37,422 bases of DNA, from positions 1 to 37,422 of the IMG/VR virus record IMGVR_UViG_3300009616_000008. One strand, written 5' to 3'. Below the pieces are notes generated by a model that was not told where the DNA came from, made no database searches, and saw only the letters and a program-made list of their open reading frames with translations. The DNA is from a virus. The translations under genes were made by a program, and so were the position numbers. Positions 445 through 28,945 of this stretch are shown one piece after another (position 1 is the first letter of the stretch; each line of letters opens with the position of its first letter).

Positions 445-1689
445 TTAATCTTCCTCAACCTCACTCGCTACTTCCTCCGGCATTTCAACCGTCATACCAT
501 AATTGAATTCTTTACCGGCAAATACATCAAGCGCCTTCAGCACTTCATCGGTAAAATATACCTCTGGGTTTGCTTCGATCTGTTTTTCAGTTGCTACCTT
601 ATCACCAATTCTAATTTTACCACCCTTCTTTGCTTTCTCTTTACCTTCTTTCAGTTTCGCAAATCCTTCTGTTGCTGTTTTCTCTTTCTTCTCTTTTACT
701 CTCTTGAATAGTTCATACTTCAATCCAAGTTCCAGTAATCCATAATACTTATCTAATCCGCCCGCATAATCCAGAGATACATCAATCAATGTATTCTCTT
801 TCGTCAAGCGGCCCTTTTCTAACTTACAGTGTAAAATAACTCCAACTACTTCAGTTCCTTCTTTATCTTTACTCTTACTCAAGAATACTGAAAGCGAATT
901 GGCATATTGTGGCCCACTGCCACCCGATTGGACTGTGTGAGAAAATAGATCTTGAGTCTTATATACATGATTCGTAATAAAGAATGGAATATTTAATAAA
1001 CCCATTTTCAATGTAATAGTTCTGAATGCTGATTTAATCAACCGGGTTCTGGTCATATCTTGTTTCTCACTACCCGATTCAGCATCTTCCATTTCTTTCT
1101 GTGTAGAAAGATTTCCCAAAGAGTCGCATACAAACATCAATTCTTGCCGCTCTGAAGGTTTTGTTTCTTTCACTACGCGCAACATCTTAAGTGATTGAGT
1201 CCGGAATTCTTGAACCGTTTCGATAGGAATCACATATACACGAGATACATCAATTCCTCTTGACACCATCATATCTTTTGTAATCGCACCTTCAGTTTCA
1301 AAGAACATGATCCCCGATCCCGGGTGCGTATCCAAGAAATGTTTAACCAATGCTAAAATGAAATAGGTCTTACCTGTAGCAGATGGTCCTGCGAAAACAA
1401 CAATCTTGTTGTTAGGTGCTCCACCAAATAATGAACCACTCCATTGAGCGTTCAATAGATATACACCCGTATCAATCCAACCCGTTACATCGCCTGATAT
1501 AATTCCATTTGAAGCCGCTTGAGCAAGGTCATTTCCTGTTGCTTTGGCTATCTTTTCAAAAAAGGCGATATTGGCCGTTTGCTTTACTTTCTTTTCCCGT
1601 ACCTTCTTTTCTCTTACAGGTTTAGGTGCTCTTGGTTTCTTTACCCGTTGAATTTTGTTTGCTGCTTTAATTTTCTTTGGACGCGCCAT
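445..1689 (-). CDS. uvsX: UvsX-like RecA-family recombinase
   Basis: This is the strand-exchange recombinase that coats single-stranded DNA and drives recombination-dependent replication and repair. The Walker A motif GPSATGKT is at about residues 101-108 and Walker B (LMFVCDS) near 184-190. The GGSGPQYANS stretch further on is the RecA/UvsX-type DNA-binding loop region. At 414 aa it is close to T4 UvsX. The first 40 residues form a Lys/Arg/Pro-rich extension not needed for the fold, and the tail is acidic (EEVASEVEED), as in T4 UvsX. It overlaps the upstream HD gene by 23 bases and the start has a GGAGAG ribosome site just upstream. The family call is firm; the basic N-terminal extension is unusual. 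Confidence 0.93.
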   Translation of the reverse strand: MARPKKIKAANKIQRVKKPRAPKPVREKKVREKKVKQTANIAFFEKIAKATGNDLAQAASNGIISGDVTGWIDTGVYLLNAQWSGSLFGGAPNNKIVVFAGPSATGKTYFILALVKHFLDTHPGSGIMFFETEGAITKDMMVSRGIDVSRVYVIPIETVQEFRTQSLKMLRVVKETKPSERQELMFVCDSLGNLSTQKEMEDAESGSEKQDMTRTRLIKSAFRTITLKMGLLNIPFFITNHVYKTQDLFSHTVQSGGSGPQYANSLSVFLSKSKDKEGTEVVGVILHCKLEKGRLTKENTLIDVSLDYAGGLDKYYGLLELGLKYELFKRVKEKKEKTATEGFAKLKEGKEKAKKGGKIRIGDKVATEKQIEANPEVYFTDEVLKALDVFAGKEFNYGMTVEMPEEVASEVEED

Positions 1690-2899: not shown

Positions 2900-3362
2900 T
2901 TTTTAATTTTTCCTTCAATAACTCATGCAAATATCCTTGTGCATTAAATATAATAGCACATAATGCAGTTTCTTTATTTACTGGTTTACCAGTTTTTTTA
3001 TCAATTGTAGGATATCCTCTATGTAATTTCCATAAATCCCAAACATGTCGTAACAAAGATTTAATATATGAATTAAAAGTTATACCTAACTGCCAATTAT
3101 CTCCAGGTCTTTTGGATCCATCCGCTTGTACACTACAACTTAACATATATTCTCCAAATGCTTCTAATACAATTGGAGATAAACAAGCTTCATAATCAAT
3201 CTTTGATATATCTAAATCTCTGGTTGCTCCAGTTTCAAATTCTCTAACCAATGAAAGTCCTCTAGTCATAGTACCCATTACTGTATGAGATTTATTATCA
3301 CCTTCTAATGTTTTATATTTCGGATATTCATTATTTTCTTCTATCATTTCTTCTGTATTCAT
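2886..3362 (-). CDS. MazG/MazZ-like dNTP diphosphohydrolase (DUF5664-like)
   Basis: The central segment matches the pattern of the DUF5664 / dATP-dGTP diphosphohydrolase family as I know it: SPIVLEAFGEYM, then ADGSKRPGDNWQLG, YIKSLLRHVWDLW, an acidic/His helix and a final helix FNAQGYLHELL. Members are distant MazG relatives that hydrolyse dNTPs to dNMPs, and some (MazZ) support 2-aminoadenine phage genomes. No PurZ partner is visible here, so ordinary pool control is equally likely. The stop of the upstream DNA polymerase and this start share ATGA, implying translational coupling. The family call is moderately sure; the substrate is inferred. Confidence 0.6.
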   Translation of the reverse strand: MNTEEMIEENNEYPKYKTLEGDNKSHTVMGTMTRGLSLVREFETGATRDLDISKIDYEACLSPIVLEAFGEYMLSCSVQADGSKRPGDNWQLGITFNSYIKSLLRHVWDLWKLHRGYPTIDKKTGKPVNKETALCAIIFNAQGYLHELLKEKLKNGVC

Positions 3363-6022
3363 ACGAAAAATTTATCCATATCTTCTATTTTTTCTGTACT
3401 CCACCCAATTGGGTCTAAAATTTTCTCAATTGGATTTATAAAAGTCTTTTCATACATTTTTTCATAATCAACATACTTATGCAATCCAAATTCTGGTGGT
3501 AATTTACCATTAAAAGCAATTACTTGATCATCAATTGGATTAGGTTGTTTCAAATATACATACTTGATTCTTTCAGATGATGTAATTGGAGGATATTTTT
3601 TCTGCAACTTTTTATCCTCTAAACATTTATTATAAATTAAAACGGCTTTAACTCCAATATCTGTTCCTTTTTTATAAGTGTCTGCTTCATCTTCCCATTT
3701 TTTTAAATTATTCACTCCTCGAGGGCGGGCAATATCTTCAACTGGTAATTTCATAAACTTTTGTCGAAATGTTTCTATGAAATCTGCCATTTCAAATTGT
3801 GTTCCTGTCATCATAATTTGGACAGCTTTTCTCATTGCATCTCGGCAATATTGTGGGGTACTTGATTTAACAAGATCAAATCCCATAATTTTCAATTTAG
3901 AAACTCGTTTAGTATTTTTACTTTTACAATCATTACAAGGTGGTGCTTTTTCAGAAGGACCAGAAAACTCATTATGGCAAGCATTACATTCAAAATAATT
4001 ATCACCTTCTGAATTCCATACTTGTAAAGCGTAGTGCTTCTTGGATGCCCAAATGCCGCGGTCTGCTAATACTTCCCGTTTCATACTTAAGATCGGCTTT
4101 TCAAGTTTCATCCCATTGATAAGGTCATTTGTAATTTGAGAAAACAATTGATCAATCAATGGTTCTAATTTAGTCTTACAAACTTTATCCAAGAAACTAA
4201 TCAATGTCTCAATATCTGGTTTCTTTCCTTTAAACACATGCTGAATCAATTTATCCAAACTTACATAAACTGAATCTGTATCTGAATAAATCACAAAATC
4301 TAAATTTTCAGTCTTATATAGGTCATTAAAATACCGATTCAATTCACGCGCAATATATTGGATGATGAATTGCCCAGTCATTGTGACCGCTTCAGCATTG
4401 TCCAAATCATACCAACGAAAATAAGGATTTCCATAAGCACCGTAAAGTGAATTGAGCAAAATTTTAGTTGCTTTTTGTTTTACATCTAATTTGGAAACCA
4501 AATTCTCTAATTCTATTTTTCTCTTTGGATCGGTACATCTTTCTAATTCTTTTTTAGCTGCTTTCAGATCCGCTTGATATTTCTTCCGTTTAGTAAAAAT
4601 AGTTTCAACCATGCGACTATAGAAACTTTGTTTCTCCTTACTATAGAAAACTCCATTAGAAGCACTAGTACAATTATTACTTGTCGCTCTACCAAAAGCC
4701 TCTTCCCATTTATCATTTTCCGCCAACACATCATCAGAATTTAAATTCATTTTCAGGTCGGTTAATTTAACTTCAGGACCAATATTCAGTACGCGAATAA
4801 TATTAGGATACAGTGAAGCTACGTCAAACGATACTACACTTTCATAAACTCCCGGATTAGGTGGTTTAACATATGCACCTACATATTGATCCTTTTTCTC
4901 TTGATATTCTTTTTGTGGGATTACAATCTTCTCTTGATGAAGCCAATTAAAGATCAATACATCCCATGTTCTTACTTGCGCGAGAACATCCATAAAATTC
5001 ACTTTAGCCAAATAAGCTACATCAACAGTTAACGCAATCAGATTTACTTTCTTTTCCAATTGTTCAATCAAATTCACATCTTGGATATTATATTCAGTAA
5101 ACCATTGAAAATCTTTTTCATAAAATTCTTTCATAGTTTCATATTTTTCTCGCCAATCAACTTTTCCTTCACCTTTCAATTCTGTTTTGGCAATATAATC
5201 CAATTTATAATTTTCTCTTGGATCTTTGATATTTTTAACATAGATCTGATAATAATCGATTTGAGATATCCCATAAATCTCATAACATTGCCATTCTCTA
5301 TGATTGAAATCTACTGAAACCGCTTGGACAATTCCCCATGTTGATAATTTCTTTGCGGTCTTTTCATCAAACAAATTCATTAAACGATTATACAAATATG
5401 GGATATCAAAGAATCTTGAATTCCATCCTGTGATAATATCAGGGTCTAATTTATTCCAGAATTCAAGGAACCCCAAAAGCATTTCTTTTTCACTTTCAAA
5501 TTCATAATGCTTAATGTTCTTTGATTTTGGAACAAAATGATTCTTCTTATTATATTTCTTTCCATCTACGAATGTGAAAACATGGAAGATATCAACATTG
5601 AATTCTTTAACAGTCAGAACATTGATTCGTTCACGCGCTATCTTCGCATCATCCTGTGTAAATCCTTGTTCGTTCTCATGCTCTAAATCGAGAGAAACAA
5701 TACAAAGAGCATTCAATGAATATTCAAGGTCATGTTCTGGATATTCTTCAGCAATAAAACTATATTGAAATTGTGAATTCCCATAGATGGGATACTGATC
5801 ATTTTCGGCATGATCTTTGATAAATTCCCGCGCTTCTTTGATTTCATTGAAATGTATGGGTTCAACCGGATCTCCGACTAATGTATGCCATTCTGAATTA
5901 GATTTTCCTGGGACATATAAGGTCGGGTGATATTTTATCCGGTACCGTTTTCTTTTCCCGTTATCAAATTCCTTTAATAGTACATTTGAACCATAACAAC
6001 ATACATTGGTGTAAAATTTCAT
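3359..6022 (-). CDS. 43: Family B DNA polymerase (T4 gp43-like) with zinc-ribbon insert
   Basis: The replicative polymerase with 3'-5' proofreading. Exonuclease motifs: Exo I SLDLEHE (Asp112/Glu114), Exo II GWNSRFFD (Asp206), Exo III YNIQD (Asp315). Polymerase motifs: A VVSFDVASLYPN (Asp400), B KATKILLNSLYGAYGNP (517-533), C IYSDTDS (Asp581/Asp583), and KKHY at 661-664. The C-terminus ends MDKFFV, which fits a clamp-binding tail. Length 887 aa, close to T4 gp43 (898). Odd feature: residues 679-699 contain Cys-x2-Cys-x13-Cys-x2-Cys, a zinc ribbon inserted between the KKHY motif and the KIMGFDLVKSSTP segment, which T4 gp43 lacks. A TAGGAATTC ribosome site precedes ATG 6022. Confidence 0.96.
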   Translation of the reverse strand: MKFYTNVCCYGSNVLLKEFDNGKRKRYRIKYHPTLYVPGKSNSEWHTLVGDPVEPIHFNEIKEAREFIKDHAENDQYPIYGNSQFQYSFIAEEYPEHDLEYSLNALCIVSLDLEHENEQGFTQDDAKIARERINVLTVKEFNVDIFHVFTFVDGKKYNKKNHFVPKSKNIKHYEFESEKEMLLGFLEFWNKLDPDIITGWNSRFFDIPYLYNRLMNLFDEKTAKKLSTWGIVQAVSVDFNHREWQCYEIYGISQIDYYQIYVKNIKDPRENYKLDYIAKTELKGEGKVDWREKYETMKEFYEKDFQWFTEYNIQDVNLIEQLEKKVNLIALTVDVAYLAKVNFMDVLAQVRTWDVLIFNWLHQEKIVIPQKEYQEKKDQYVGAYVKPPNPGVYESVVSFDVASLYPNIIRVLNIGPEVKLTDLKMNLNSDDVLAENDKWEEAFGRATSNNCTSASNGVFYSKEKQSFYSRMVETIFTKRKKYQADLKAAKKELERCTDPKRKIELENLVSKLDVKQKATKILLNSLYGAYGNPYFRWYDLDNAEAVTMTGQFIIQYIARELNRYFNDLYKTENLDFVIYSDTDSVYVSLDKLIQHVFKGKKPDIETLISFLDKVCKTKLEPLIDQLFSQITNDLINGMKLEKPILSMKREVLADRGIWASKKHYALQVWNSEGDNYFECNACHNEFSGPSEKAPPCNDCKSKNTKRVSKLKIMGFDLVKSSTPQYCRDAMRKAVQIMMTGTQFEMADFIETFRQKFMKLPVEDIARPRGVNNLKKWEDEADTYKKGTDIGVKAVLIYNKCLEDKKLQKKYPPITSSERIKYVYLKQPNPIDDQVIAFNGKLPPEFGLHKYVDYEKMYEKTFINPIEKILDPIGWSTEKIEDMDKFFV

Positions 6023-6054: not shown

Positions 6055-6648
6055 TTATTTGTGTTTTCCTTCCGAAACTTTATACATACAATCATAATTG
6101 AGTTTATGAATCTTACAAAATTTATATAAATTATTAACAATTCGCATTTTAAAATCCGGATAAACTATTTTCCAATTTTTGGAATGTAATTCAGAATTTT
6201 GTTTTAGAAATCTTTTGGAACGCTTAAGTCCTAATTGATTATTTGGCTTACCAATTTTAGATTCCGATAAATGTATCTTATGTTCTTCTGATTTCTTTTT
6301 TCCAGAAAGAGATTTTGATATTTTTATATTTGTCTTTTTGGAATTTTTTCCATGACCACCTCCACCAACAGTATAATTATAACCGTGTTTATAGGTATCA
6401 AAATAAAATATACAAAGTATTTCCAAATTTAAGGCTTCTTTTAAAGTAGGAATATTATCAATTAAAATTTGGTGAATCCATTGATTTTCTTTTGTATATT
6501 TTCTTATAGCGTAATCTATTTTCAATTTATGGTTTTCATTTTTAGAGTGTTTAATTTCTTCTTTCCAACGGACCATCATTGGTTTATAAGTATATCCAAT
6601 ATATGCTTTCTTGGAAATTTTACAAGTATGTTTATAAATTAGATACAT
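6055..6648 (-). CDS. GIY-YIG homing endonuclease
   Basis: The N-terminus YLIYKHT...KAYIGYT is the GIY-YIG nuclease motif, followed by a conserved Arg (VRWKEEIKHS) and a catalytic-type Glu (NLEILCIFYFD). The C-terminal half has NUMOD3-like DNA-binding repeats (SGKKKSEEHKIHLSESKIGKPN region). It is closely related to the plus-strand gene at 22647-23267: both share the IYKHT / YIGYT / DNIPTL-type blocks and the GYN...GGxGHGK block. It lies directly upstream of the DNA polymerase gene in the same direction, behind its own strong sigma-70 promoter, as expected for a mobile gene flanking a conserved target gene. Confidence 0.9.
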   Translation of the reverse strand: MYLIYKHTCKISKKAYIGYTYKPMMVRWKEEIKHSKNENHKLKIDYAIRKYTKENQWIHQILIDNIPTLKEALNLEILCIFYFDTYKHGYNYTVGGGGHGKNSKKTNIKISKSLSGKKKSEEHKIHLSESKIGKPNNQLGLKRSKRFLKQNSELHSKNWKIVYPDFKMRIVNNLYKFCKIHKLNYDCMYKVSEGKHK

Positions 6649-11924: not shown

Positions 11925-11940
11925 TTTTTTTCTCTCTTTT

Positions 11941-12303: not shown

Positions 12304-12365
12304 ATATTACCTTTTAAATGATTGGTTCCACATGTGGATGTAATTCTTCAAAATAACATAATCTA

Positions 12366-12394
12366 AATATATCACAAATAATTCTGGTTGTCAA
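12366..12394 (-). promoter_or_regulatory. Early sigma-70 promoter
   Basis: Minus-strand TTGACA (12394-12389), 17-base spacer, TATATT (12371-12366), reading into the 120-aa gene at 12303. It lies just downstream of tRNA-Asn, so it restarts transcription after that tRNA. Confidence 0.75.
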
Positions 12395-12404
12395 GTAAGA
12401 AATT

Positions 12405-12479
12405 TGGCTCTGGCCCTTGGATTCGAACCAAGATCCTAAATGTTAACAGCATTTCGCTTTACCATTAAGCTAGACCAGA
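12405..12479 (-). tRNA. tRNA-Asn (GUU)
   Basis: Acceptor TCTGGTC / GGCCAGA with one U-G pair, D arm GCTTAATGGTAAAGC, anticodon stem AAATG / CATTT with loop CTGTTAA (anticodon GTT), T loop TTCGAAT, and encoded GCCA. A standard class I tRNA. Confidence 0.93.
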
Positions 12480-12490
12480 AGATCCTTTAG

Positions 12491-12722
12491 CTACCCGGGA
12501 ATGTAATTACTTTCAGAATCTAAAACCAATTCATATTTGAGCAAGTAAAATTTATAATTTTCAATATAACATTGGTGGTCTTTTTAAATATAAATAATAG
12601 CTTGTGTAACATAATCAGGACGTTTGTATAATTTAGCTTTACTTATTTTTTATCCACGTATCACGACCACAATAAAATGGCTTAATCCATCCATCATTAC
12701 GCCGCAAAATATACACATTCAT
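12491..12722 (-). pseudogene. broken small phage gene (frameshift plus nonsense)
   Basis: An AAGGAT ribosome site and ATG 12722 open MNVYILRRNDGWIKPFYC and run 27 codons to a TAA at 12641-12639. A +1 shift continues KAKLYKRPDYVTQAIIYI to an in-frame TAA at 12586-12584, after which the same frame continues KDHQCYIENYKFYLLKYELV to TAG at 12493-12491. Losing one A from the A6 run before the first stop would give ...DTWIKISKAKLYKRP... The combined product resembles the common small phage proteins with a C-terminal E-Y-E-L-V block. Two lesions make a decayed gene more likely than a sequencing slip. Confidence 0.6.
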
Positions 12723-12734
12723 AATATTATCCTT

Positions 12735-12809
12735 TGGAGCGAGGTGCGAGGATCGAACTCGCATAAACTAGCTTGGAAGGCTAGCGCACAACCATTATAC
12801 CAACCTCGC
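12735..12809 (-). tRNA. tRNA-Gly (UCC)
   Basis: Acceptor GCGAGGT / ACCTCGC, anticodon stem CTAGC / GCTAG, loop CTTCCAA (anticodon TCC), T loop TTCGATC, encoded TCCA. The ribosome site of the broken gene at 12722 follows the CCA end almost directly. Confidence 0.93.
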
Positions 12810-12901
12810 CACGCTCATCCGAGGCGCCCATTCGCGATTCGCGAATCGCGAATCCCGAATCTATAATGGTCTCATGGTCTTGAAGCCACAGGATTCCTCG
12901 C
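12810..12901. other. G+C-rich spacer with palindrome
   Basis: Between tRNA-Gly and the 63-aa gene lies about 90 bases of much higher G+C content than the surroundings. It contains a perfect 24-base palindrome (listed separately) and a GAATCC...GGGATTC pair that could close a larger stem. I see no open frame or tRNA in it. Confidence 0.45.
12830..12853. repeat. 24-bp perfect palindrome built from ATTCGCG units
   Basis: The half-site ATTCGCGATTCG is followed directly by its reverse complement. The repeat unit ATTCGCG occurs twice per arm, so alternative foldings are possible. No T-run follows on either strand, so it is not a standard intrinsic terminator. It may be an RNA processing hairpin or a protein-binding site. 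Confidence 0.8.
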
Positions 12902-13093
12902 TTATCGAATACGCAATTGATATTGTAACTTTTCTGCCAAAATCATAATATCTTCGGCATTTTCGGTACAAACAAATCTTAACCCACTATCCTTACGTAT
13001 TTCTACATTTTTTAGTATTTCATATATTTCTCCTATTGTTAGATAATCTCTCAATAGAAAAAATAAAAATAATTTAATTCGTTCTTGATCCAT
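12902..13093 (-). CDS. hypothetical protein, 63 aa
   Basis: The start is ATG 13093 (MDQERIKLFLFFLLRDYLTI), with a TTGAGGAATAGT ribosome site; the longer frame upstream is tRNA-Gln read as protein. A hydrophobic helix near residues 6-18 is followed by charged helix and a short strand (GLRFVCTEN). It could be a small helical regulator. No family recognised. Confidence 0.55.
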   Translation of the reverse strand: MDQERIKLFLFFLLRDYLTIGEIYEILKNVEIRKDSGLRFVCTENAEDIMILAEKLQYQLRIR

Positions 13094-13114
13094 ACTATTC
13101 CTCAATTCAAAATT

Positions 13115-13188
13115 TGGCACCCGGTCAGGGACTCGAACCCCAATTAATGGCTCCAAAGGCCACTGTCCTACCATTAGACGAACCAGGT
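13115..13188 (-). tRNA. tRNA-Gln (UUG)
   Basis: Acceptor ACCTGGT / ACCGGGT, D arm with GG, anticodon stem TGGC / GCCA with loop CTTTGGA (anticodon TTG), T loop TTCGAGT, encoded GCCA. The upstream gene's stop codon ends one base before the tRNA 5' end. Confidence 0.92.
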
Positions 13189-13189
13189 A

Positions 13190-13552
13190 TTAACCCATAG
13201 AACTTGGTGAAGTACCCATAGTATTTACATTAGCATTATAAGGTTCTTCTATTTTTGACCGACGAAATTCCTTATTTTTTTCTTCTCGTTCTGTTTTATC
13301 TCTATCTTCAGTTATTGGTGTATCTTTCAAAAAATTTTCAAGAGACATATCATCCATACGGCCTACTTGGATAACTACACCATCAAGGACAAAATGCCAT
13401 TCATTTGCTGGAAGATCAAGTAATATTTCTTGCCCTTCATCAAATCGGTAAGACCAATGTTCATCAGCCCCTTTAACAGGACCTACATAACCATGCATAT
13501 TTAATAAAATGGTTTGCGTTGCTTGTTTAAAAATTTCTTTATAAGATTTCAT
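13190..13552 (-). CDS. hypothetical protein, 120 aa
   Basis: Unrecognised. An N-terminal helix (SYKEIFKQATQTILLNMHGY) and a strand-rich middle (YRFDEGQEILLDLPANEWHFVL) are followed by a highly charged region (TEDRDKTEREEKNKEFRRSK) that is probably disordered. The stop lies one base from tRNA-Gln, so mRNA and tRNA are likely cut from the same transcript. Confidence 0.6.
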   Translation of the reverse strand: MKSYKEIFKQATQTILLNMHGYVGPVKGADEHWSYRFDEGQEILLDLPANEWHFVLDGVVIQVGRMDDMSLENFLKDTPITEDRDKTEREEKNKEFRRSKIEEPYNANVNTMGTSPSSMG

Positions 13553-13564
13553 ATTTAATATTTA

Positions 13565-13960
13565 TCAAAATTTCAAAAAACTTTCATGGATTAATATACC
13601 TTTTGGTGGTCTTGTTTCACACCTTCCATACCGAGAACTACAATTATATGGTATATATTTCTCAGTATTAAAAATTGCTTTCTTTCCATTTAAAGGACCA
13701 CCAATACAAGGAAATTTAGTAGATCCACTTACTCTTTTATAAGAATAACTATATTCCCATTTTGATTTGGTTTTTAATTTATAAAATACATCACTAATAA
13801 AAACATCTTCCGATCGATTTTCAGTTTCATTATGTATTGTTAACACATCCTGATCCCATTTTATATCATATTTTTCATAAGAATCATAATCTTTTAAGAA
13901 AGCGGGTTGTTTGAATGTTCGTTTTATAACATCAGGGAATTTCGTTTTTCCTATCCACAT
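13565..13960 (-). CDS. hypothetical protein, 131 aa
   Basis: Unrecognised as a whole. The piece FPCIGGPLNGKKAIFN resembles a C-x-G-G-P-x-x-G motif in many small phage proteins of unknown role. The ATG overlaps the end of the upstream 28-aa frame by ten bases. Confidence 0.55.
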   Translation of the reverse strand: MWIGKTKFPDVIKRTFKQPAFLKDYDSYEKYDIKWDQDVLTIHNETENRSEDVFISDVFYKLKTKSKWEYSYSYKRVSGSTKFPCIGGPLNGKKAIFNTEKYIPYNCSSRYGRCETRPPKGILIHESFLKF

Positions 13961-14037
13961 ACTACTACTCCATGTTTAAATAATACACTCGGTTCTATCG
14001 TTCCATCATTATACATTGCAACCTTTTCTTCACTCAT
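13951..14037 (-). CDS. small hypothetical protein, 28 aa
   Basis: ATG 14037 is preceded by GGTGGAAATT and opens MSEEKVAMYNDGTIEPSV, ending GVVVCG. Its stop lies inside the start of the next gene. The good ribosome site and overlap support translation, but such a short frame could be a leader that couples translation. Confidence 0.45.
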   Translation of the reverse strand: MSEEKVAMYNDGTIEPSVLFKHGVVVCG

Positions 14038-14068
14038 AATTTCCACCAATAATATACATGAAATAACA

Positions 14069-15253
14069 TTACATATCCTTCTTATCCCGAAATCCAAGTG
14101 CCCTTGGAAACCTTGGAATACCATCTGCTGTTAAATTTTGAAATGCTACTTTCACCAACTTACCAATATATTTCTTTCCATCTCGGTAATATTCTTCACG
14201 TTTTGCCGCCGATGCTTTAGGTGTAGCTTTAAATCTCTTATGATCTTTTGTTTCACAAATCCAAATGGCTGAATTAGCCATTTTACCAACACCATGTTCG
14301 AAATCAACTACCTTATATTCTGCATCTTGGAAAGATTTTACTTTTTGAATATCGCTTGATCGGTGGCCAAATAAATATTCACCATCCCAATTACGGACAA
14401 TACATCCTTCATATCCTTGTTCCACAAATGTTTTTTCAAAATCAAAAATTTCATCATATTCATATGTAGGTTGTAAACATGCACTACAAACTCCTGCATA
14501 ATATTTTGGTAATTTAACTACTTGATTTACAATATAAGTTGGTACTAAAACCAAATATGCACTTTCATATTTTGGACTAGTAGGGTTTAATTTATGAAAA
14601 AATGCTTCAAGATTTTTCAAGCGATTCTTCCAAATATCACGTTTCCCCAATTCATTAATTGGCATATCAAATACATGATATTCTAATTGTTCTGTTTCAC
14701 CTTCATGATATTTCTTTGCCCATGAAGTAAGAGATTCAAAATCAACTCCATGAACATATAATTCACCATCCAGAACCATTTCTTGTGGCATTACTTTTTC
14801 AAGTTCTTCAATAATATGTTTAGGAGCCGTCCATTCTTTACCACCGCGAGTCCCTAATACTACACGGCCATCTTCCCAATATGCCATTGCACGAACACCA
14901 TCCAATTTTGGTTGGAGGTCACATGGATAAACGATTCCGCGGCCTTTCTTTTTATGAAAATCGTGTGCCAACATAGGTAAAAAGATTTCTTCTTTAGCAC
15001 CTTCTTTAGTTTCAGAATATTTTCGTTCCCGTTTAAAAGTCCACATTGCTTGAGCTTCCAAAATTGCTTGTTCTTCCGCAGTTGTGGCATTTGCTTTACC
15101 AAAATTTTTTGGAGTAGCTTTTTTGGGTGAAAGTTGTAATTTACCACCAATTTGTCCATGGCGGGTAATAATAGTATCACCTTCTGTCCAAATATCCCAT
15201 TGAACTAAAGCTCCCGTTTTACTTTTATGATATAATGTTGGAAATGTTTTCAT
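14069..15253 (-). CDS. ATP-dependent DNA ligase with WGR-like N-terminus and zinc-half insert
   Basis: Seals nicks through a ligase-AMP intermediate. Motif I is KLDGVR with lysine 116 as nucleotidyl acceptor; LDGELYVHG (motif III region), EYHVFDMP (IIIa), YEGCIVR (IV) and a C-terminal KLVKVAF-type motif V follow. The first ~80 residues (HKSKTGALVQWDIWTEGDTI, HGQIGGKLQ) look like a WGR domain. I choose ATG 15253 (MKTFPTLYHKSK) for its AAGGAT site; 394 aa. Residues about 244-264 are encoded by a 65-bp sequence also present at 27629-27693 and contain CSAC, an insert between motifs IIIa and IV that ordinary ligases lack. Activity with this insert is uncertain. Confidence 0.85.
   Translation of the reverse strand: MKTFPTLYHKSKTGALVQWDIWTEGDTIITRHGQIGGKLQLSPKKATPKNFGKANATTAEEQAILEAQAMWTFKRERKYSETKEGAKEEIFLPMLAHDFHKKKGRGIVYPCDLQPKLDGVRAMAYWEDGRVVLGTRGGKEWTAPKHIIEELEKVMPQEMVLDGELYVHGVDFESLTSWAKKYHEGETEQLEYHVFDMPINELGKRDIWKNRLKNLEAFFHKLNPTSPKYESAYLVLVPTYIVNQVVKLPKYYAGVCSACLQPTYEYDEIFDFEKTFVEQGYEGCIVRNWDGEYLFGHRSSDIQKVKSFQDAEYKVVDFEHGVGKMANSAIWICETKDHKRFKATPKASAAKREEYYRDGKKYIGKLVKVAFQNLTADGIPRFPRALGFRDKKDM
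14462..14526. repeat. 65-bp exact direct repeat, copy 1 (inside ligase)
   Basis: Identical over 65 bases to 27629-27693, in the same orientation and same reading frame on the minus strand. It encodes QVVKLPKYYAG followed by VCSACLQPTY. Flanking bases diverge immediately on both sides. Confidence 0.95.
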
Positions 15254-15254
15254 T

Positions 15255-15440
15255 TTAAAATCCTTGTGAACGGTCATATGCAGCTTCCGCTTGAGCGGCC
15301 TTTTTTTCCGACCAATTAACCTCAGCATCAAGGAAAACATTATACTGTTCATTTTCAGGCAAATCGTAAAAATCTACACCAAAACGTTCTTCAGCAAGAC
15401 GTTCTGCTTCCATTTGAATTTCATATTTATAGTCTGACAT
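15255..15440 (-). CDS. hypothetical acidic helical protein, 61 aa
   Basis: Starts at ATG 15440 (MSDYKYEIQMEAERLAEERF) with a TTGAGGTT ribosome site close to the promoter. The sequence is helical, acidic and ends KKAAQAEAAYDRSQGF. The stop is one base from the ligase start, so the two are coupled. No family recognised. Confidence 0.6.
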   Translation of the reverse strand: MSDYKYEIQMEAERLAEERFGVDFYDLPENEQYNVFLDAEVNWSEKKAAQAEAAYDRSQGF

Positions 15441-15457
15441 ATTCAACCTCAATTACA

Positions 15458-15486
15458 ATTATAGCGTATGTAAGGCCGCTTGTCAA
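15458..15486 (-). promoter_or_regulatory. Early sigma-70 promoter for ligase operon
   Basis: Minus-strand TTGACA (15486-15481), 17-base spacer, TATAAT (15463-15458): full consensus. It reads into the 61-aa gene and ligase with a very short leader. Confidence 0.88.
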
Positions 15487-15499
15487 GTGATTTTTAAAG

Positions 15500-15592
15500 A
15501 CGCCTAGTGGATTCTTTGCTCACGCGAAAGAACCCTGTAAGGAGGCGAGATGATCTTGCTCAAGGACCATCTTCTTGTGGTATGCTAGGCGT
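15500..15592. other. Structured element, possible small RNA (strand uncertain)
   Basis: A closing stem ACGCCTAG (15500-15507) / CTAGGCGT (15585-15592) encloses two hairpins. One is GGATTCTTT / AAAGAACCC (15509-15517 with 15527-15535, one mismatch). The other is GATGATCTT / AGGACCATC (about 15549-15572, with mismatch and G-U). It is richer in G+C than its flanks, lies between a tRNA and a promoter, and is not a tRNA. On the plus strand it contains AAGGAGG and a 12-codon frame from ATG 15550 (MILLKDHLLVVC). It may be a small RNA, a decayed tRNA or a processing signal. Confidence 0.5.
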
Positions 15593-15605
15593 ACCCATAC
15601 CAAAC

Positions 15606-15682
15606 TGGAGCCGCGGGGGAGAATCGAACTCCCTCTCTGTTGATTACAGGTCAACCGCTTTCCCGGATTAAGCTACCGTGGC
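15606..15682 (-). tRNA. tRNA-Thr (UGU)
   Basis: Acceptor GCCACGG / CCGCGGC with one A-C mismatch at pair 4-69, D arm GCTTAATCCGGGAAAGC, anticodon stem GTTGA / TCAAC with loop CCTGTAA (anticodon TGT), T loop TTCGATT, encoded TCCA. Otherwise a normal tRNA. Confidence 0.9.
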
Positions 15683-15754
15683 TAATAACTTTTTCCTTTT
15701 ATTTTAAAAATAAATCTCCTTCCCTTACCTTTTGTATTTAAAGATCCGAAATTA

Positions 15755-15830
15755 TGGCGGGACCGAACGGATTCGAACCGTCAACATCTTGCTCGACAGG
15801 CAAGAACTCTAACCATTGAGCTACGGTCCC
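15755..15830 (-). tRNA. tRNA-Asp (GUC)
   Basis: Acceptor GGGACCG / CGGTCCC, D arm GCTCAATGGTTAGAGT, anticodon stem CTTGC / GCAAG with loop CTGTCGA (anticodon GTC), T loop TTCGAAT, encoded GCCA. Its first base is the last base of the TAG stop of the upstream FmdB-like gene. Confidence 0.94.
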
Positions 15831-16054
15831 TAAACTTTCTTTTTCGGATAATCATTCACATAAAATCCAGGGCCCACAAATTTCAATGCGGAAGTAGAAA
15901 CTTTCCGTTCCAAGTGGCCGCGGCATCTACTTTCTGTCAATTCATAATTTTCTGCTAAATCACCGTGGGTCAAAACTCTGGCTTCTTCATCCATCTTTTG
16001 GAAGATTTCAAAAGTCTTTCCGCATTCACTACACACGTAATCGTAATATGGCAT
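15830..16054 (-). CDS. FmdB-family zinc-ribbon protein, 74 aa
   Basis: MPYYDYVCSECGKTFEIFQKM is the FmdB-type opening with the first CxxC knuckle, and ALKFVGPGFYVNDYPKK is the family's characteristic ending. The second knuckle, normally CPxCG, is reduced to SRCRG, leaving three cysteines plus possibly a histidine. Start at ATG 16054 with a TAGGATTTTT site; the longer frame upstream overlaps the protease gene. Such proteins may regulate transcription or bind nucleic acid, but their role in phages is unknown. The stop TAG overlaps tRNA-Asp by one base. Confidence 0.8.
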   Translation of the reverse strand: MPYYDYVCSECGKTFEIFQKMDEEARVLTHGDLAENYELTESRCRGHLERKVSTSALKFVGPGFYVNDYPKKKV

Positions 16055-16061
16055 AAAAATC

Positions 16062-16844
16062 CTAATGGTCTTTTTCACCCTGTGTAGCCGCAGGTAATGG
16101 AGCATCTGGATCCGATTGATACCATTTATATTTTCCATCTTTTAATAATTTTCGAAATTTAATTAAACGCGATACTGGCATAGCAATCATACTTGTTTGT
16201 GCTACAGTACCAACTATAAAAGCACAAATAGCATGTTGATTCAAACAAATAACCGATGAACCACTTGATCCACCATTTATACCAAATTCTTGTAATAATA
16301 TAGTTCCAGTCCATTGAATGGCATCATCAACAATAGGACGATCAACACTTGTACTAGAAACAGACCCTAAAAACACTTGTTTACCAATTCCTAATGGACC
16401 ACCAACATTAATTACTTCATCTAATAAATTAGGATCTTCACCTAATGGAATAATAGGAAAACTAAAAGTTTTATCAACTGTTAATAAGAAAAAATCATCA
16501 CCTTTAGTCCTATATCCGCAACCTTTAGGAATTGCTTTTAAATAAACTTTATCCCCAGGAATATCTGGAGATATAAAGAAAAATGTTTTTTCTGGTGTAA
16601 CTGTCTTTTTTTCCGAATCATCTATACAACCACAATGAGCGGCTGTAACAAATGTATATGTAGTTTTATCTTCATCAATAGCTGTAGCGGTACATTTCAT
16701 TTCCATTGTACCTTGTGCTGTTTGAGCATATAATAATGTTGTAGCTGGCCATAATACTTTATTCACATATAATTTATCGGCATTCGATAACTGTCCGAAT
16801 ATTAATGTTGAAAACATCAACGAAAGAACTATTAATTTCGTCAT
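16062..16844 (-). CDS. secreted trypsin-like (S1) serine protease
   Basis: Residues 1-18 (LIVLSLMFSTLIFG) form a signal peptide. The chymotrypsin triad is readable: His in FVTAAHCGC, Asp in KGDDFFLLTVD, and Ser in FGINGGSSGSSVIC, which also gives the oxyanion glycine. Several cysteine pairs fit disulfides in the periplasm. Length 260 aa matches a single S1 domain plus a short Pro-rich tail. Trypsin-like proteases are uncommon as free, exported phage products. It could degrade host envelope or periplasmic defence proteins, or act at lysis. It lies in an early-direction operon between small genes. Confidence 0.85.
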   Translation of the reverse strand: MTKLIVLSLMFSTLIFGQLSNADKLYVNKVLWPATTLLYAQTAQGTMEMKCTATAIDEDKTTYTFVTAAHCGCIDDSEKKTVTPEKTFFFISPDIPGDKVYLKAIPKGCGYRTKGDDFFLLTVDKTFSFPIIPLGEDPNLLDEVINVGGPLGIGKQVFLGSVSSTSVDRPIVDDAIQWTGTILLQEFGINGGSSGSSVICLNQHAICAFIVGTVAQTSMIAMPVSRLIKFRKLLKDGKYKWYQSDPDAPLPAATQGEKDH

Positions 16845-16865
16845 CCAATTTCCTTAATTTAAATT

Positions 16866-17123
16866 TTAATCTCTTTTTCTTGGATCTTCTTTACTAGCAT
16901 TTTTAATTTCTATTTCTGTTAATTTTACAGTTAATTCATTTTCATCCATTGCTTCAAAAAGAGCCATTTCAATAGCAATACCACCCTCTTCTTTTATAGT
17001 GGCTGCCCGTTTATTAATTCCGTGTGATACTAATAAATGATCTTTTTCCTTATCAGATAATTGATTCATTTGTTTTACAAATTTAAGTGTATTTAATAAT
17101 GTATGTTGCATACTTATAACCAT
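16866..17123 (-). CDS. hypothetical protein, 85 aa
   Basis: Two starts are possible: ATG 17123 (purine-rich GGAAGAGA close upstream) or ATG 17111, right after the stop of the 24-aa frame. The protein is helical, with an acidic middle (EMALFEAMDENELTVKLTEIEI) and ends KEDPRKRD. No family recognised. Confidence 0.55.
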   Translation of the reverse strand: MVISMQHTLLNTLKFVKQMNQLSDKEKDHLLVSHGINKRAATIKEEGGIAIEMALFEAMDENELTVKLTEIEIKNASKEDPRKRD

Positions 17124-17188
17124 TCTCTTCCATAATCTTGTTCTTGATCATATCTTATTAATCTTTCAACAAAATCTTTTATTTTCAT
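17114..17188 (-). CDS. small hypothetical protein, 24 aa
   Basis: ATG 17188 has an AAAGGAAATATC ribosome site and opens MKIKDFVERLIRYDQEQDYG, ending REWL. Its TAA lies at the start of the next gene, giving translational coupling. It may be a leader peptide or a real microprotein. Confidence 0.45.
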   Translation of the reverse strand: MKIKDFVERLIRYDQEQDYGREWL

Positions 17189-17206
17189 GATATTTCCTTT
17201 AATCTT

Positions 17207-17374: not shown

Positions 17375-17378
17375 AAAA

Positions 17379-17857: not shown

Positions 17858-17860
17858 ATT

Positions 17861-22646: not shown

Positions 22647-23267
22647 ATGTCTAAACCTATTTATTTAATATATAAACACACCAGTCCATCAGGAAAATCT
22701 TATATTGGATATACTTGTCAAACTATGAAAGAAAGATGGAAACAAGAAATTTCACATTCCAAAAATTTTAAACATGGACACAAATTAGATACTGCTATTA
22801 GAAAATATCCAAATGAGGATCAATGGACTTATAAAATCCTAATATATAATATTCCAACTTTAGACGAAGCCAAGAATTTAGAAATCATTTGTATATTTTA
22901 TTTTGATACAAATATTAATGGATATAATATGACTCCTGGTGGAGATGGACATGGAAAACATTCTAAAGAAACTAAAAATAAAATAGGTATGAAAAATAAA
23001 GGAAAAATTTCTTGGCGTAAAGGTAAAATTAATTTACCAAAACATTCTAAAGAAACTATATACAAAATGTCACAAATAAAATTAAATAAACATCCATCAC
23101 AAAAAACTAAAAATAAAATATCTAAATCTTTAACTAATCGGAAACTTTCCAAAGAACATATATTTAACAGGTCTAAATCTCAAACAGGATTAAAACGCTC
23201 ACAAGAAACCAAAAGGAAAATACAAATAGCCAAATTAGGACAACATTACACAAAACAATGTGGATAG
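22647..23267 (+). CDS. GIY-YIG homing endonuclease, second copy
   Basis: IYLIYKHTSPSGKSYIGYT is the GIY-YIG motif, with conserved Arg (ERWKQEISHSKN) and Glu (NLEIICIFYFD). The C-terminal half has repeated KHSKETxxKx-type NUMOD3 segments for DNA binding. It is clearly paralogous to the minus-strand protein at 6055-6648. It is in the opposite direction to its neighbours, behind a late-type promoter element and a hairpin; the ribosome site AGAGGT is rather far (about 12 bases) from the ATG. It is probably mobile and inserted beside the RNA ligase gene. Confidence 0.9.
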   Translation: MSKPIYLIYKHTSPSGKSYIGYTCQTMKERWKQEISHSKNFKHGHKLDTAIRKYPNEDQWTYKILIYNIPTLDEAKNLEIICIFYFDTNINGYNMTPGGDGHGKHSKETKNKIGMKNKGKISWRKGKINLPKHSKETIYKMSQIKLNKHPSQKTKNKISKSLTNRKLSKEHIFNRSKSQTGLKRSQETKRKIQIAKLGQHYTKQCG

Positions 23268-25575: not shown

Positions 25576-26460
25576 TTATCCTTCTTTCAATAATTGTTCA
25601 TGCATTGTTTTAAATGCTGCATAAAAATCTTCTGGATGAATTGAATAAGACCATAAATCACCATTCCCATCGGGAAAAGAAATTTCATAAAACCCAAAAA
25701 AGGTTCCACCGAAATGTGCTACTTGTTTTTCTTTTGGTGTATTTTCATTTTCAATTACATCTACCATACAATCTGCCAATTTAAATCTCATTGTCCCTTT
25801 AGTTTGTCCGGGATACCAATCTCTTTGAACTGGGACAGAAATTGTAGCCACTGGAACTCTTGGCTTTTTGACAACTGGATCCGGATCATTTTTGATTTCT
25901 TTTGGCTCTTTCTTTTTCTTTGCAATTTTCTTTTTCTTAACAGTTTTCTTTGGTACATATTTTTCCTCTACCAAATCTTCTGTCGGTGAATCTATTGAAG
26001 CATCAAATGCTTTATCGAGATTATCACCACTAATAACAATACCATGGTCATCTAACCACCATTGCGGAAATGAATGATCTTTGTTATGGTCTTCCAAAAT
26101 TATATTATGTAATTCTATACCCCCCTTTTCAAACAATTCATCTATTTCATATTTTACATATACACGATAAGTATAATCTGAAACCACAAGTATCAAAGAA
26201 TTAGGATTATTTTCAGCCCATTTAATCAAATACCGTGAATTATCTTCCATCAATGAGGTTCCTGGCAGCATTCCACCAAAATCGTAAATAACTAAATCTG
26301 TACCTTCTTGAATACCACCCACGGAATGCGCCCGATATGCATCCAATTCACATGGAAAAATTAAAGCAGCAAATACTTTTTTATGAGTTTCTACTTCCTC
26401 TTCTGCTGTATGCATAGAGGTGCCCATAGGATCTACAAGGATACAAGTTTTAATTTTCAT
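25576..26460 (-). CDS. hypothetical protein inserted in clamp-loader operon, 294 aa
   Basis: Three parts are visible: an N-terminal alpha/beta domain of about 160 residues with Rossmann-like strands (KTCILVDPMG, TDLVIYDFGGMLPG, NSLILVVSDYTYRVYVK); a Lys-rich linker (KKTVKKKKIAKKKKEPKEIK); and a C-terminal domain of about 90 residues (YPGQTKGTMRFKLADCMVDV, HFGGTFFGFYEISFPDGNGD). The N-terminal pattern VDPMGTSM...VIYDFGG could be a response-regulator-like or P-loop-less NTPase fold; I cannot name it. T4 has no gene between 44 and 62, so this is a lineage-specific insertion that may act with the loader or simply share its operon. Confidence 0.65.
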   Translation of the reverse strand: MKIKTCILVDPMGTSMHTAEEEVETHKKVFAALIFPCELDAYRAHSVGGIQEGTDLVIYDFGGMLPGTSLMEDNSRYLIKWAENNPNSLILVVSDYTYRVYVKYEIDELFEKGGIELHNIILEDHNKDHSFPQWWLDDHGIVISGDNLDKAFDASIDSPTEDLVEEKYVPKKTVKKKKIAKKKKEPKEIKNDPDPVVKKPRVPVATISVPVQRDWYPGQTKGTMRFKLADCMVDVIENENTPKEKQVAHFGGTFFGFYEISFPDGNGDLWSYSIHPEDFYAAFKTMHEQLLKEG

Positions 26461-27401
26461 ATAACTTCAAATCCTTCATCTGCCATTACAGTTGTTAAAA
26501 ACGCAAGCAAACAAATTTCTTGATCCAAACTACGTGATGCTTGATCCAGAAAATCACCCAAAATCAAAACAAATTGTGGAATGAATTCTGGCTTAAAATG
26601 AACATACATCACATCAAACAACTGCCGATATATGCGCGTGGGTTCATTATCTGCGTTATTAGCTACCCACTTTCTCACTTTACCAAAATCTTTATCTTTC
26701 ATTGCTGCTAAAAGTTCCTTAATCGGAACATCGGCCAACTGGCTTAAAATACCTGAATCAATCTTTCCTGTAATTGCATATCTTTGAATTACACCAATTG
26801 TCATACGAAAATCAGGAAAGAATTTCGAAATCAATTGCATTAAAACTGCATTTTCAAATGGGATCTTTTCTATCTTTAAGATTTCGGCAATCCGTTGATG
26901 CATTTGTTTGGCCATAGAAACTTTTTCTTCTTTTGTTGGTTTAAAATCAACAATAGGACAGCGAGAAAATAAAGCATCAATTACTTGATTCTTAAAATTG
27001 ATAGTTAAAATAAAACTACAATTTCCAGAAAATTCTTCCATGAAATTCCGTAATGCTTCTTGAGTTAACTTGGTAAGCCCATCAGCTTCATCCAAAATAA
27101 CTACTTTACGTCCACCAGTCATAGATACTGTTGATGAAAAACCACGAATATCTGTTCTCAATGTATCAATATTACCATTTTCAGAACAATTGATAATTAA
27201 ACTATCCGCATCCAACTCATCACATAGCGCACGAGCAATAGTTGTTTTTCCAATTCCTGGAACACCATGTAAAGTTATATTAGGAATAATATTTTGATCT
27301 ACATAAGATTGGAATATTATTCTGAGGTTTTCTGGAAGGACTGTATCTTTTACCGTACGTGGACGATATTTCTCTGCCCAAATAATTTCTTTACGAATCA
27401 T
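26457..27401 (-). CDS. 44: clamp loader large subunit (gp44-like AAA+ ATPase)
   Basis: ATPase subunit that opens the sliding clamp and places it on primed DNA. AKYRPRTVKDTVLPENLR-type start, Walker A GVPGIGKTT at about 46-54, Walker B VVILDEAD, sensor 1 LTINFKNQ, the SRC motif (ALFSRCPIVDF) and a sensor 2 region with FRMTIGVIQRYA are all present. Length 314 aa matches T4 gp44 (319). It overlaps the gene after it by four bases (ATGA type) and its start overlaps the end of the frameshifted gene at 27391. Confidence 0.95.
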   Translation of the reverse strand: MIRKEIIWAEKYRPRTVKDTVLPENLRIIFQSYVDQNIIPNITLHGVPGIGKTTIARALCDELDADSLIINCSENGNIDTLRTDIRGFSSTVSMTGGRKVVILDEADGLTKLTQEALRNFMEEFSGNCSFILTINFKNQVIDALFSRCPIVDFKPTKEEKVSMAKQMHQRIAEILKIEKIPFENAVLMQLISKFFPDFRMTIGVIQRYAITGKIDSGILSQLADVPIKELLAAMKDKDFGKVRKWVANNADNEPTRIYRQLFDVMYVHFKPEFIPQFVLILGDFLDQASRSLDQEICLLAFLTTVMADEGFEVI

Positions 27402-27581
27402 GTAATACTTTTTCCTTTTCTTTTTTCAATTTAATTATTGTAGGATATTTAGGATCTCTACACCATCTACAAAGTAATGGTGCTCCTTTCATTTCACCCT
27501 CAAGAATTACAGCATCATAAAATAACCCGCGCGATCAGGAAATAATTGGTCACTCTCTCCACAAATTTTACATTTTTCCAT
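27391..27581 (-). pseudogene. frameshifted zinc-binding small gene, about 62 aa if intact
   Basis: ATG 27581 overlaps the upstream stop (TAATG) and encodes MEKCKICGESDQLFPDR before running to TAA at 27509-27507. One frame over, GLFYDAVILEGEMKGAPLLC and RWCRDPKYPTIIKLKKEKEK continue to a TAA overlapping the gp44 start by 11 bases. Removing one CG from the CGCGCG run joins them. The joined product has two CxxC knuckles and resembles a small phage zinc protein. The preserved overlaps at both ends suggest the lesion is recent or an assembly error. Confidence 0.65.
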
Positions 27582-27862
27582 TATGTAACCACCACTTTCA
27601 ATTTAGTTCCTTGATTTTGTCCTTGATAATATGTAGGTTGTAAACATGCACTACAAACTCCTGCATAATATTTTGGTAATTTAACTACTTGATCTGATTG
27701 AATTAAATCAAGGAACTTCTTTACACTAAAGGGATATGTTTTACGTTTTTCTTTATTTTCTGGTTCACTGGTATCAATTGCCAAAAATTGAGCCATTTTA
27801 CGTTTCTGACCACAAAATTGGCAATGTAAAGTTGTATTTTTTCTTTTAGTAGATTTAGCCAT
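27581..27862 (-). CDS. zinc-ribbon protein, 93 aa
   Basis: Start at ATG 27862 (MAKSTKRKNTTLHCQFCGQK). Two CxxC pairs, CQFC and CSAC, about 50 residues apart form a probable zinc ribbon, with a basic N-terminus. The second knuckle and flanks (QVVKLPKYYAG, VCSACLQPTY) are encoded by a 65-bp sequence identical to one inside the ligase. In this protein the segment is integral to the zinc site, so this is likely the donor copy. It overlaps the upstream gene by 8 bases. Confidence 0.7.
   Translation of the reverse strand: MAKSTKRKNTTLHCQFCGQKRKMAQFLAIDTSEPENKEKRKTYPFSVKKFLDLIQSDQVVKLPKYYAGVCSACLQPTYYQGQNQGTKLKVVVT
27629..27693. repeat. 65-bp exact direct repeat, copy 2 (zinc-ribbon gene)
   Basis: Identical over 65 bases to 14462-14526 in the ligase gene, same strand and same reading frame. 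Identity stops abruptly at both ends. Confidence 0.95.
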
Positions 27863-28246: not shown

Positions 28247-28945
28247 TTAATTACCATATTGACTAGCATTTGCTTCTAATACAATATGATATGTAAGTGG
28301 TAAAGTCTCATGTTTAAAGCGGCTAATACCATCTTTACATACTGCAACATCATAAGTGCCTGGAATTAATGTTAAATAATCAATTTTCCAAACAAATTTA
28401 AATGGAGGAATTTTAGCAGGTGCTTTACCAATTTCAAGACTGGTTGTATTTGTACTGCTATTTTTACTATCTAATGTAGTTAGACTTAACTTTTTACCAT
28501 CACTTTCAAGAGCCAATTCAGGCGTTCCTAAAGTTCTAGCCATATTTGTAATTGATCGAAATTGAGCTTCTGTTAATTTTAAGGTAACTTCAGTACTAGG
28601 TAAAGCTATTTTTTTCTTAGGATCTGGAATATATGCTAAAGCTTCATCTCCATAATGATATTTAACCGATAAACCACCAGATTCATCACTAATTTTAACA
28701 TATTCATCAGCTTCATCAAAAATCAATGTTGGTTTTTCAAATTGTGTTGTTACTGATAAAAATTGAGTTAAATCATAAATTGTAAATCTTTTAGGAAATT
28801 TTTCTGTTATTTCTACTTCTGCAAAAGTATGTTTCTTTACAGAACGTGTTACCAAATTATTTCCTTTTGGAAACAATAATGTTTGATTAATAGTTGCAAA
28901 ATTCTTTAAAATATCAGTTGTTATTGGTGTTAATAATAGAGACAT
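28247..28945 (-). CDS. 45: sliding clamp (gp45-like)
   Basis: Processivity factor of the DNA polymerase and, in T4, coactivator of late transcription. The order of elements follows gp45: ILKNFATINQTLLFPKGNNL, FTIYDLTQFLSVTTQFEKPTLIFDE, LTEAQFRSITNMARTLGTPE LAL, and the ending TYDVAVCKDGISRFKHETLPLTYHI VLE. Length 232 aa (T4: 228). The start has AAAAAGGAATTAGCTA. The presence of gp45 fits the TATAAATA late-promoter elements seen here, because T4 late transcription needs the clamp. Confidence 0.93.
   Translation of the reverse strand: MSLLLTPITTDILKNFATINQTLLFPKGNNLVTRSVKKHTFAEVEITEKFPKRFTIYDLTQFLSVTTQFEKPTLIFDEADEYVKISDESGGLSVKYHYGDEALAYIPDPKKKIALPSTEVTLKLTEAQFRSITNMARTLGTPELALESDGKKLSLTTLDSKNSSTNTTSLEIGKAPAKIPPFKFVWKIDYLTLIPGTYDVAVCKDGISRFKHETLPLTYHIVLEANASQYGN

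What the first reader, a model, noticed from the sequence alone, without database searches (positions are those of the whole stretch)
14462..14526. Exact 65-bp repeat has placed half a zinc ribbon inside the DNA ligase
Bases 14462-14526 and 27629-27693 are identical and in the same reading frame. In the 93-aa protein at 27581 the segment supplies the second CxxC of a zinc ribbon. In the ligase it forms an insert between motifs IIIa and IV where other ligases have a short loop. Perfect identity over 13 kb distance implies recent copying (gene conversion, template switching or a mini mobile segment). It may have created a new domain or damaged the ligase.
Basis: partly seen in the sequence, partly recalled or inferred. 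Interest (0 to 1): 0.8.

Follow-up and report, generated by a model that had tools for sequence, protein, structure and literature searches.

The report
Gene fragment copied into phage ligase
In a T4-like phage, a 63-base piece of one replication-region gene has been copied, in frame and without change, into the middle of the phage's DNA ligase gene 13 kb away, a freshly preserved example of how new protein segments can arise by copying errors.

Summary
The 65-bp repeat is exact and is the longest repeat in a 101.6-kb contig of the same virus. Both copies also occur in two other viral contigs, so a one-off assembly error is unlikely. The 93-aa gene is the source: its family, including this segment, is conserved in related phages beside the sliding clamp. 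The ligase is the recipient: 0 of 101 ligase rows from other viruses or genomes that cover the site carry the segment (88, 13). Removing 21 codons restores the junction length of 86 of 87 relatives. The copy is recent: no difference in 63 nt, against dS about 0.9 to the nearest ligase without it. Flanks are not homologous and no third exact copy was found, so gene conversion and a mobile element are disfavoured. A two-step template switch in a T4-type, UvsX-bearing replication system fits best; related events are described for T4 (PMC3016281). The insert falls in a strand-helix loop of a confidently predicted ligase fold. It is most likely a tolerated loop extension; a half ribbon alone should not bind zinc. 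Function was not tested.

The parts
14069..15253 (-). ATP-dependent DNA ligase gene, 394 aa, start taken at the ATG at 15253 from alignment with relatives (a longer in-frame ORF starts at 15352)
   Evidence: phrog_114 E 2e-76, PF01068 and PF14743 over cut-off, alignment, model with mean pLDDT 91.9
14462..14526 (-). 65-bp repeat, recipient copy in the ligase
14462..14524 (-). inferred 63-bp (21-codon) insertion, residues 244-264; placement can slide by up to 2 bp
27581..27862 (-). 93-aa four-cysteine protein gene (donor), between clamp and clamp-loader genes
27629..27693 (-). 65-bp repeat, donor copy; carries the second CxxC
26457..27401 (-). clamp loader subunit (gp44-like)
   Evidence: phrog_168 E 3.8e-103
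28247..28945 (-). sliding clamp (gp45-like)
   Evidence: phrog_223 E 5.9e-55
445..1689 (-). UvsX-like recombinase
   Evidence: phrog_97 E 5.5e-74
3359..6022 (-). DNA polymerase
   Evidence: phrog_262 E 3.4e-269
6055..6648 (-). GIY-YIG homing endonuclease (candidate source of DNA breaks in a rival explanation)
   Evidence: phrog_314 E 5.2e-21
22647..23267 (+). GIY-YIG homing endonuclease, paralogue of the previous
   Evidence: phrog_314 E 5.7e-21; 74% nt over 330 bp

Best explanation
An ectopic templated insertion. During replication or recombination-dependent repair of the phage genome, a nascent strand in the ligase gene left its template, paired by chance with the 93-aa gene 13.2 kb away in the same orientation (2-bp AT microhomology), copied 63 nt, and returned to the ligase template without loss of ligase sequence. 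The result is an in-frame 21-aa extension of the loop between a strand and the helix that leads into motif IV. It survived because it is in frame and in a loop, and it is present in every record of this virus that covers the site (3 of 3). Shown: exact copy, direction, recency relative to the nearest relative found, net insertion without loss in length, one open frame. Inferred: template switching rather than end joining with filler DNA, and a tolerated, roughly neutral effect on ligase activity.
For: Exact 65-bp identity, the longest repeat of the 101.6-kb contig. Direction: members of the 93-aa family in other phages carry the homologous segment, in the window, G006 and G012 between clamp and clamp loader, whereas 101 of 101 ligase rows from other viruses or genomes that cover the site lack it (88, 13; several rows are near-duplicates). 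G006, G007, G009 and G012 hold both genes and have ligases without the insert. Removing 21 codons turns a two-piece profile match (467 bits in all) into one continuous match (483 bits) and restores junction length in 86 of 87 relatives. Recency: 0 differences in 63 nt; 95% upper bound on dS between the copies 0.22, against 0.90 between this ligase and its nearest relative without the insert. Flanks non-homologous (38%/30%). The phage encodes a UvsX-like recombinase, DNA polymerase, clamp and clamp loader. For T4, sequential strand switching to an ectopic template and back is described (PMC3016281, section 16 read in full). Ligase fold predicted with mean pLDDT 91.9; blocks covering residues 241-270 at 70, 54 and 72. 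One PF01068 match each in the 74-kb and 101.6-kb contigs, the ligase itself.
Against: A 2-bp microhomology is about what chance gives, so the junctions do not single out template switching over end joining. T4 templated mutations in the review copy an imperfect repeat; no such guide was found here. A net insertion of 63 nt from 13 kb away is larger than the typical templated mutation (my recollection). The three records with the ligase copy are nearly identical where compared (99.986% or better in each fetched stretch), so they are one population, not independent events. In-frame survival is weak evidence of selection: about 1 in 9 by chance (a third for length, a third for phase; my reckoning). 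NAD-dependent ligases were not searched for, and the contigs may be incomplete, so a back-up ligase is not excluded.
Confidence: 0.68

Rival explanations
1. Break repair with filler DNA: a double-strand break in the ligase gene, perhaps cut off-target by one of the phage's own endonucleases, was healed by capture or annealing of a short single strand from the 93-aa gene.
For: Two GIY-YIG homing endonuclease genes and an HNH endonuclease gene (2369-2899, phrog_374 E 2.7e-43) lie in the window. Junctions with 2-bp microhomology fit end joining. Substitution by short intragenomic segments is reported for a bacterium (Harms et al. 2016, seen only as a reference-list entry in PMC8116780; the paper itself is not held).
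Against: Each GIY-YIG gene lies about 7.4 kb from the ligase gene, with no sign of homing at the ligase; no loss of length at the junction (86 of 87 relatives match), whereas break repair often loses bases.
Confidence: 0.2
2. Adaptive half-ribbon: the copied CxxC hairpin gives the ligase a new contact, for example with the partner of the 93-aa protein near the clamp, or by pairing with another CxxC in trans.
For: The copied part holds the conserved core of the donor family (LP..Y.G.C..C); the donor gene sits in the clamp/clamp-loader cluster; present in 3 of 3 records.
Against: No partner CxxC in the ligase (sequence); low model confidence in the insert; the unchanged copy shows no tuning; presence throughout one near-clonal population needs no selection.
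Confidence: 0.07
3. Damaging insert: the ligase is impaired and the phage relies on the host ligase.
For: A 21-aa insert before motif IV in a catalytic domain; T4 ligase-null phages can use the host ligase (recalled).
Against: No stop, frame kept, catalytic motifs kept, fold model confident, no second PF01068 match found.
Confidence: 0.15
4. Assembly artefact.
For: All records are metagenome assemblies; no reads could be inspected.
Against: Same arrangement in window, 74-kb and 101.6-kb contigs; insert is exactly 21 codons at a strand-helix junction; the uninserted junction as an exact 30-mer is in no viral contig (a diverged allele would be missed, and this call had no positive control).
Confidence: 0.02
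5. Ordinary gene conversion between paralogous segments, or a mini mobile element.
For: Perfect identity.
Against: Flanks not homologous; relatives lack any segment to convert; exact 65-mer only at these two gene positions; no stable hairpin (z 0.30).
Confidence: 0.02

Closest known systems
Templated mutations in bacteriophage T4 (Schultz et al., as told in PMC3016281, section 16)
   Same: Copying of an ectopic template and return to the original location, in a UvsX-type replication system
   Different: There an imperfect repeat is copied; here a 63-nt net insertion between unrelated genes 13 kb apart, without visible guide homology
Short-segment substitutions of intragenomic origin (Harms et al. 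2016; title seen in a reference list; content recalled)
   Same: Short tract copied from elsewhere in the genome with microhomology at the ends
   Different: Reported in a bacterium as substitutions; here a pure insertion in a phage
Sequence mosaicism of phage proteins (PMC10684548, passages seen)
   Same: Fragment shared by otherwise unrelated phage proteins; [quoted passage not shown]
   Different: Its sequence-based definition required at least 50 aa, so a 21-aa sub-domain copy lies below the cut-off
Phage ATP-dependent DNA ligase, phrog_114; nearest solved fold AsfvLIG 6imk (Z 27.0, 351 aligned, rmsd 11.4)
   Same: Motifs and overall fold
   Different: 21-aa insert before motif IV

Membership tests
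ATP-dependent DNA ligase (phrog_114 / PF01068) | Profile match over cut-off | tested here: met
   PF01068 60 bits against cut-off 26.2; phrog_114 E 2e-76
ATP-dependent DNA ligase (phrog_114 / PF01068) | Conserved catalytic motifs (KxDGxR, EG of IV, KxK of V; names recalled) | tested here: met
   K116, D118, G119, R121, E282, G283, K304, K306 invariant or at least 90% in 83 rows
ATP-dependent DNA ligase (phrog_114 / PF01068) | Nick-sealing activity | not testable with these tools
   needs purified enzyme
Ectopic templated insertion | Tract identical to an ectopic donor that stays intact | tested here: met
Ectopic templated insertion | Return to the original template with no loss | tested here: met
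   86 of 87 relatives match the emptied junction in length over an 11-residue stretch
Ectopic templated insertion | Short homology guiding the switch | tested here: inconclusive
   2-bp AT at the junctions, no more than chance
Gene conversion | Homology in the flanks or a pre-existing homologous segment | tested here: not met
   flank identity 38% and 30%; segment absent in relatives
Mobile element | Further copies or terminal structures | tested here: not met
   exact 65-mer at two gene positions only; no stable hairpin
Zinc ribbon (93-aa donor) | Four conserved zinc-ligand cysteines | tested here: met
   C14, C17, C70, C73 invariant in 5 of 5; zinc binding itself not tested
Zinc ribbon (93-aa donor) | Match to a known zinc-ribbon family | tested here: inconclusive
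   best Pfam E 0.11 (window protein only); best PHROG E 0.087 among window protein and three relatives; PDB profile best E 0.67, a zinc-finger protein
Zinc ribbon (ligase insert) | Two CxxC pairs in one chain | tested here: not met
   one CxxC only in the ligase (sequence)

The most novel reading that the evidence does not exclude
The phage has made a new protein contact by sub-domain transplantation: the CxxC hairpin copied from a replisome-cluster protein lets the ligase pair in trans with a CxxC partner (the 93-aa protein or another ligase) and so ties nick sealing to the clamp, an exon-shuffling-like step without introns or homology, caught before any mutation has touched it.
Probability: 0.06. 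Interest if true: 0.75.

Novelty: new member of a known kind. Interest (0 to 1): 0.4.

Why it matters
Insertions in conserved enzymes are usually too old to tell where they came from. Here donor, recipient, direction, ends and relative age are all legible, in the only PF01068 DNA ligase gene found in a T4-like phage. It shows that a copying error can move a sub-domain piece between unrelated genes in frame, and it gives a ready pair of proteins (with and without the segment) to measure the cost or gain of such an event. Surveys of phage protein mosaicism that require 50 aa or more would miss it.

Tried and rejected
Rejected: gene conversion (non-homologous flanks); mobile element; hairpin-driven copying (no stable fold, z 0.30); old insert lost in relatives (no difference between the copies, and the segment belongs to the donor family); insert as a feature of a known ligase subtype.

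Led nowhere: the first structure job with 8 sequences was poor (mean pLDDT 61.7), so I repeated it with 83. Pfam and PHROG gave no family for the donor. My idea that the donor resembles the ClpX zinc-binding domain is recall only; Pfam at E up to 1 did not list it for the window protein, nor did the PDB profile search. Known phages showed no relative of the donor (tblastn, blastn). A 25-nt stretch at 11955-11979 that resembles part of the repeat (84% and 80%) I judged a chance match: it lies in a 120-aa ORF that does not have the CxxC. A weak donor-profile match in the 294-aa protein at 25576-26460 (E 0.0022; sequence) shows no CxxC and was not pursued.

Rows dropped: one search left out L032 and L033 (the same virus as the window; they carry the insert) and loci that repeat a contig already used or are its near-twin (L039, L079-L083, L087, L097, L119); L039 was added. 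L148 has a stop; it is counted but was left out. One search also left out L103, L121, L123, L140, L144 as near-duplicates. One search reported 567 relatives and said there were more; the tool kept 80, the rest were not inspected. The 1057 phage records were not inspected at the insert site (30 were listed, with spans only). L078 does not cover the site, and L077 has a stop (X) at the aligned motif IV E. For the donor alignment L162 was dropped because its coordinates did not open in frame, and L166 (a weak match) was left out.

Control survey: 9 related viral contigs plus the virus's own, exact repeats of at least 36 bp and at least 2 kb apart. Many lie in paralogues or repetitive genes. Leaving out the window's own case, 7 rows have both flanks under 50% identical, in 2 of the 9 contigs: two in G009 and two in G012 touch contig ends, and three in G012 do not (66 bp direct, 46 bp inverted, 41 bp direct). 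So short ectopic copies with non-homologous flanks are not unique to this virus. Of these three, the 66-bp one covers the end of one ORF; the 46-bp one lies in no long ORF at either place; the 41-bp one was seen only. Repeats across the borders of 20-kb pieces could be missed or split, and words present more than six times were skipped for direct repeats.

Full report
What is there. The window is a virus record with replication genes of T4 type: UvsX-like recombinase, DNA polymerase, clamp loader and sliding clamp. One lies in the ATP-dependent DNA ligase gene (14069-15253, minus), the other in a 93-aa protein gene (27581-27862, minus). The 65-mer is the longest exact repeat in a 101.6-kb contig of the same virus; the next is 34 bp, and three shuffles reached 18, 20 and 18 bp. 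In both genes the phase is the same, and of the six frames only this one is open.

Not an accident of one assembly. The same pair of copies occurs in IMGVR_UViG_3300017996_000112 and IMGVR_UViG_3300039310_000050. The fetched stretches of these are 99.986% or more identical to the window, so they are the same viral population. Five further contigs hold the 93-aa locus with the exact 65-mer and end before the ligase. The uninserted junction as an exact 30-mer is in no viral contig. A paper names a contact (Lilleskov) for metagenome 3300017996 (PMC7449369, passages seen); that this is peatland is my recollection.

Direction. Relatives of the 93-aa protein in other phages carry the homologous segment: 70% identity in G004 and 52-54% in G006, G009 and G012, with four invariant cysteines. 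The gene lies between clamp and clamp loader in the window, G006 and G012, and after the clamp in G009, where an endonuclease gene follows. Ligase relatives lack the segment: 17 of 17 other rows in the first alignment, 88 of 88 in the second, which includes 16 of those 17, and 13 of 13 further rows that cover the site. CxxC between motifs IIIa and IV occurs only in the window row out of 103 rows. Contigs G006, G007, G009 and G012 have both genes and no insert. So the 93-aa gene is the donor.

Exactness. Taking out 21 codons turns a split profile match (467 bits in all) into a single one (483 bits) and gives the same junction length as 86 of 87 relatives. No ligase residue appears lost. The repeat exceeds the insert by 2 bp (AT), a microhomology that chance would readily give.

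Age. The nearest ligase without the insert (L005/L034, 74% in the best segment) differs with dS 0.90 and dN 0.16 over 354 codons, so the gene was under purifying selection over that distance. The two copies differ at none of 63 sites; with 13.7 synonymous sites the 95% upper bound on their dS is 0.22, about a quarter of that distance. Unless later conversion has kept them alike, the copy is recent.

Mechanism. Flanks are not homologous (38% and 30%), which speaks against gene conversion. No third place carries the exact 65-mer, which speaks against a mobile element. A double template switch explains an exact copy, an intact donor, and a return without loss. [quoted passage not shown] The guide repeat named there is not seen here. 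Break repair with filler DNA remains possible; the window has two GIY-YIG endonuclease genes and an HNH endonuclease gene.

Effect on the ligase. With 83 sequences the model has mean pLDDT 91.9; the blocks covering residues 241-270 score 70, 54 and 72. The insert lies after strand 240-242 and before helix 266-278, which leads into the motif IV strand. Solved ligases match the whole or its core (AsfvLIG 6imk Z 27.0, 351 aligned, rmsd 11.4; T4 ligase 6dt1 Z 22.1, 273 aligned, rmsd 11.7). It is the only PF01068 match in the 74-kb and 101.6-kb contigs; NAD-dependent ligases were not sought, and an RNA ligase gene lies at 21515-22504. I infer a tolerated loop. One CxxC cannot make a four-ligand zinc site alone.

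How unusual. In nine related viral contigs surveyed for exact repeats of at least 36 bp and at least 2 kb apart, many lie in paralogues or repetitive genes. Seven rows in two contigs have both flanks under 50% identical, four of them at contig ends. The other three are in G012: 66 bp over the end of one ORF, 46 bp outside long ORFs, and 41 bp not looked at further. So short ectopic copies occur elsewhere in this group; among the rows that I looked at, none is another internal, same-frame insertion into an unrelated long gene. A study of phage protein mosaicism used a minimum of 50 aa in its sequence-based definition (PMC10684548, passages). My searches of the paper library listed no title or abstract start that reports an in-frame intragenomic insertion into a phage DNA ligase; this covers only the open-licence library.

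Verdict. The event is a clear and recent in-frame copy between unrelated genes of a natural phage, of a kind known in principle. Its effect on the enzyme is untested.

Noticed in passing
G012 (IMGVR_UViG_3300050015_000276) 28650 and 89150; 19056 and 103224; 131470 and 169763: Exact repeats of 66 bp (direct, over the end of an ORF and the start signal of the next), 46 bp (inverted) and 41 bp (direct), all with non-homologous flanks: further short ectopic copies.
   Followed up: partly
G009 (IMGVR_UViG_3300050015_000167) 5523 and 9937: A 47-bp identical tract inside two diverged paralogues, as left by gene conversion.
   Followed up: no
window 6055-6648 (-) and 22647-23267 (+): Two paralogous GIY-YIG homing endonuclease genes, 74% identical over 330 bp.
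   Followed up: partly
window 27581-27862: The donor belongs to an uncharacterised four-cysteine family beside the clamp gene in this T4-like group, without Pfam or PHROG family.
   Followed up: partly
window 9740-20192 and 28166-28241: 16 predicted tRNA genes, 15 of them within about 10 kb.
   Followed up: no
window ligase motif IV (YEGCIVRN): A cysteine where the 17 relatives have A, V or I.
   Followed up: no
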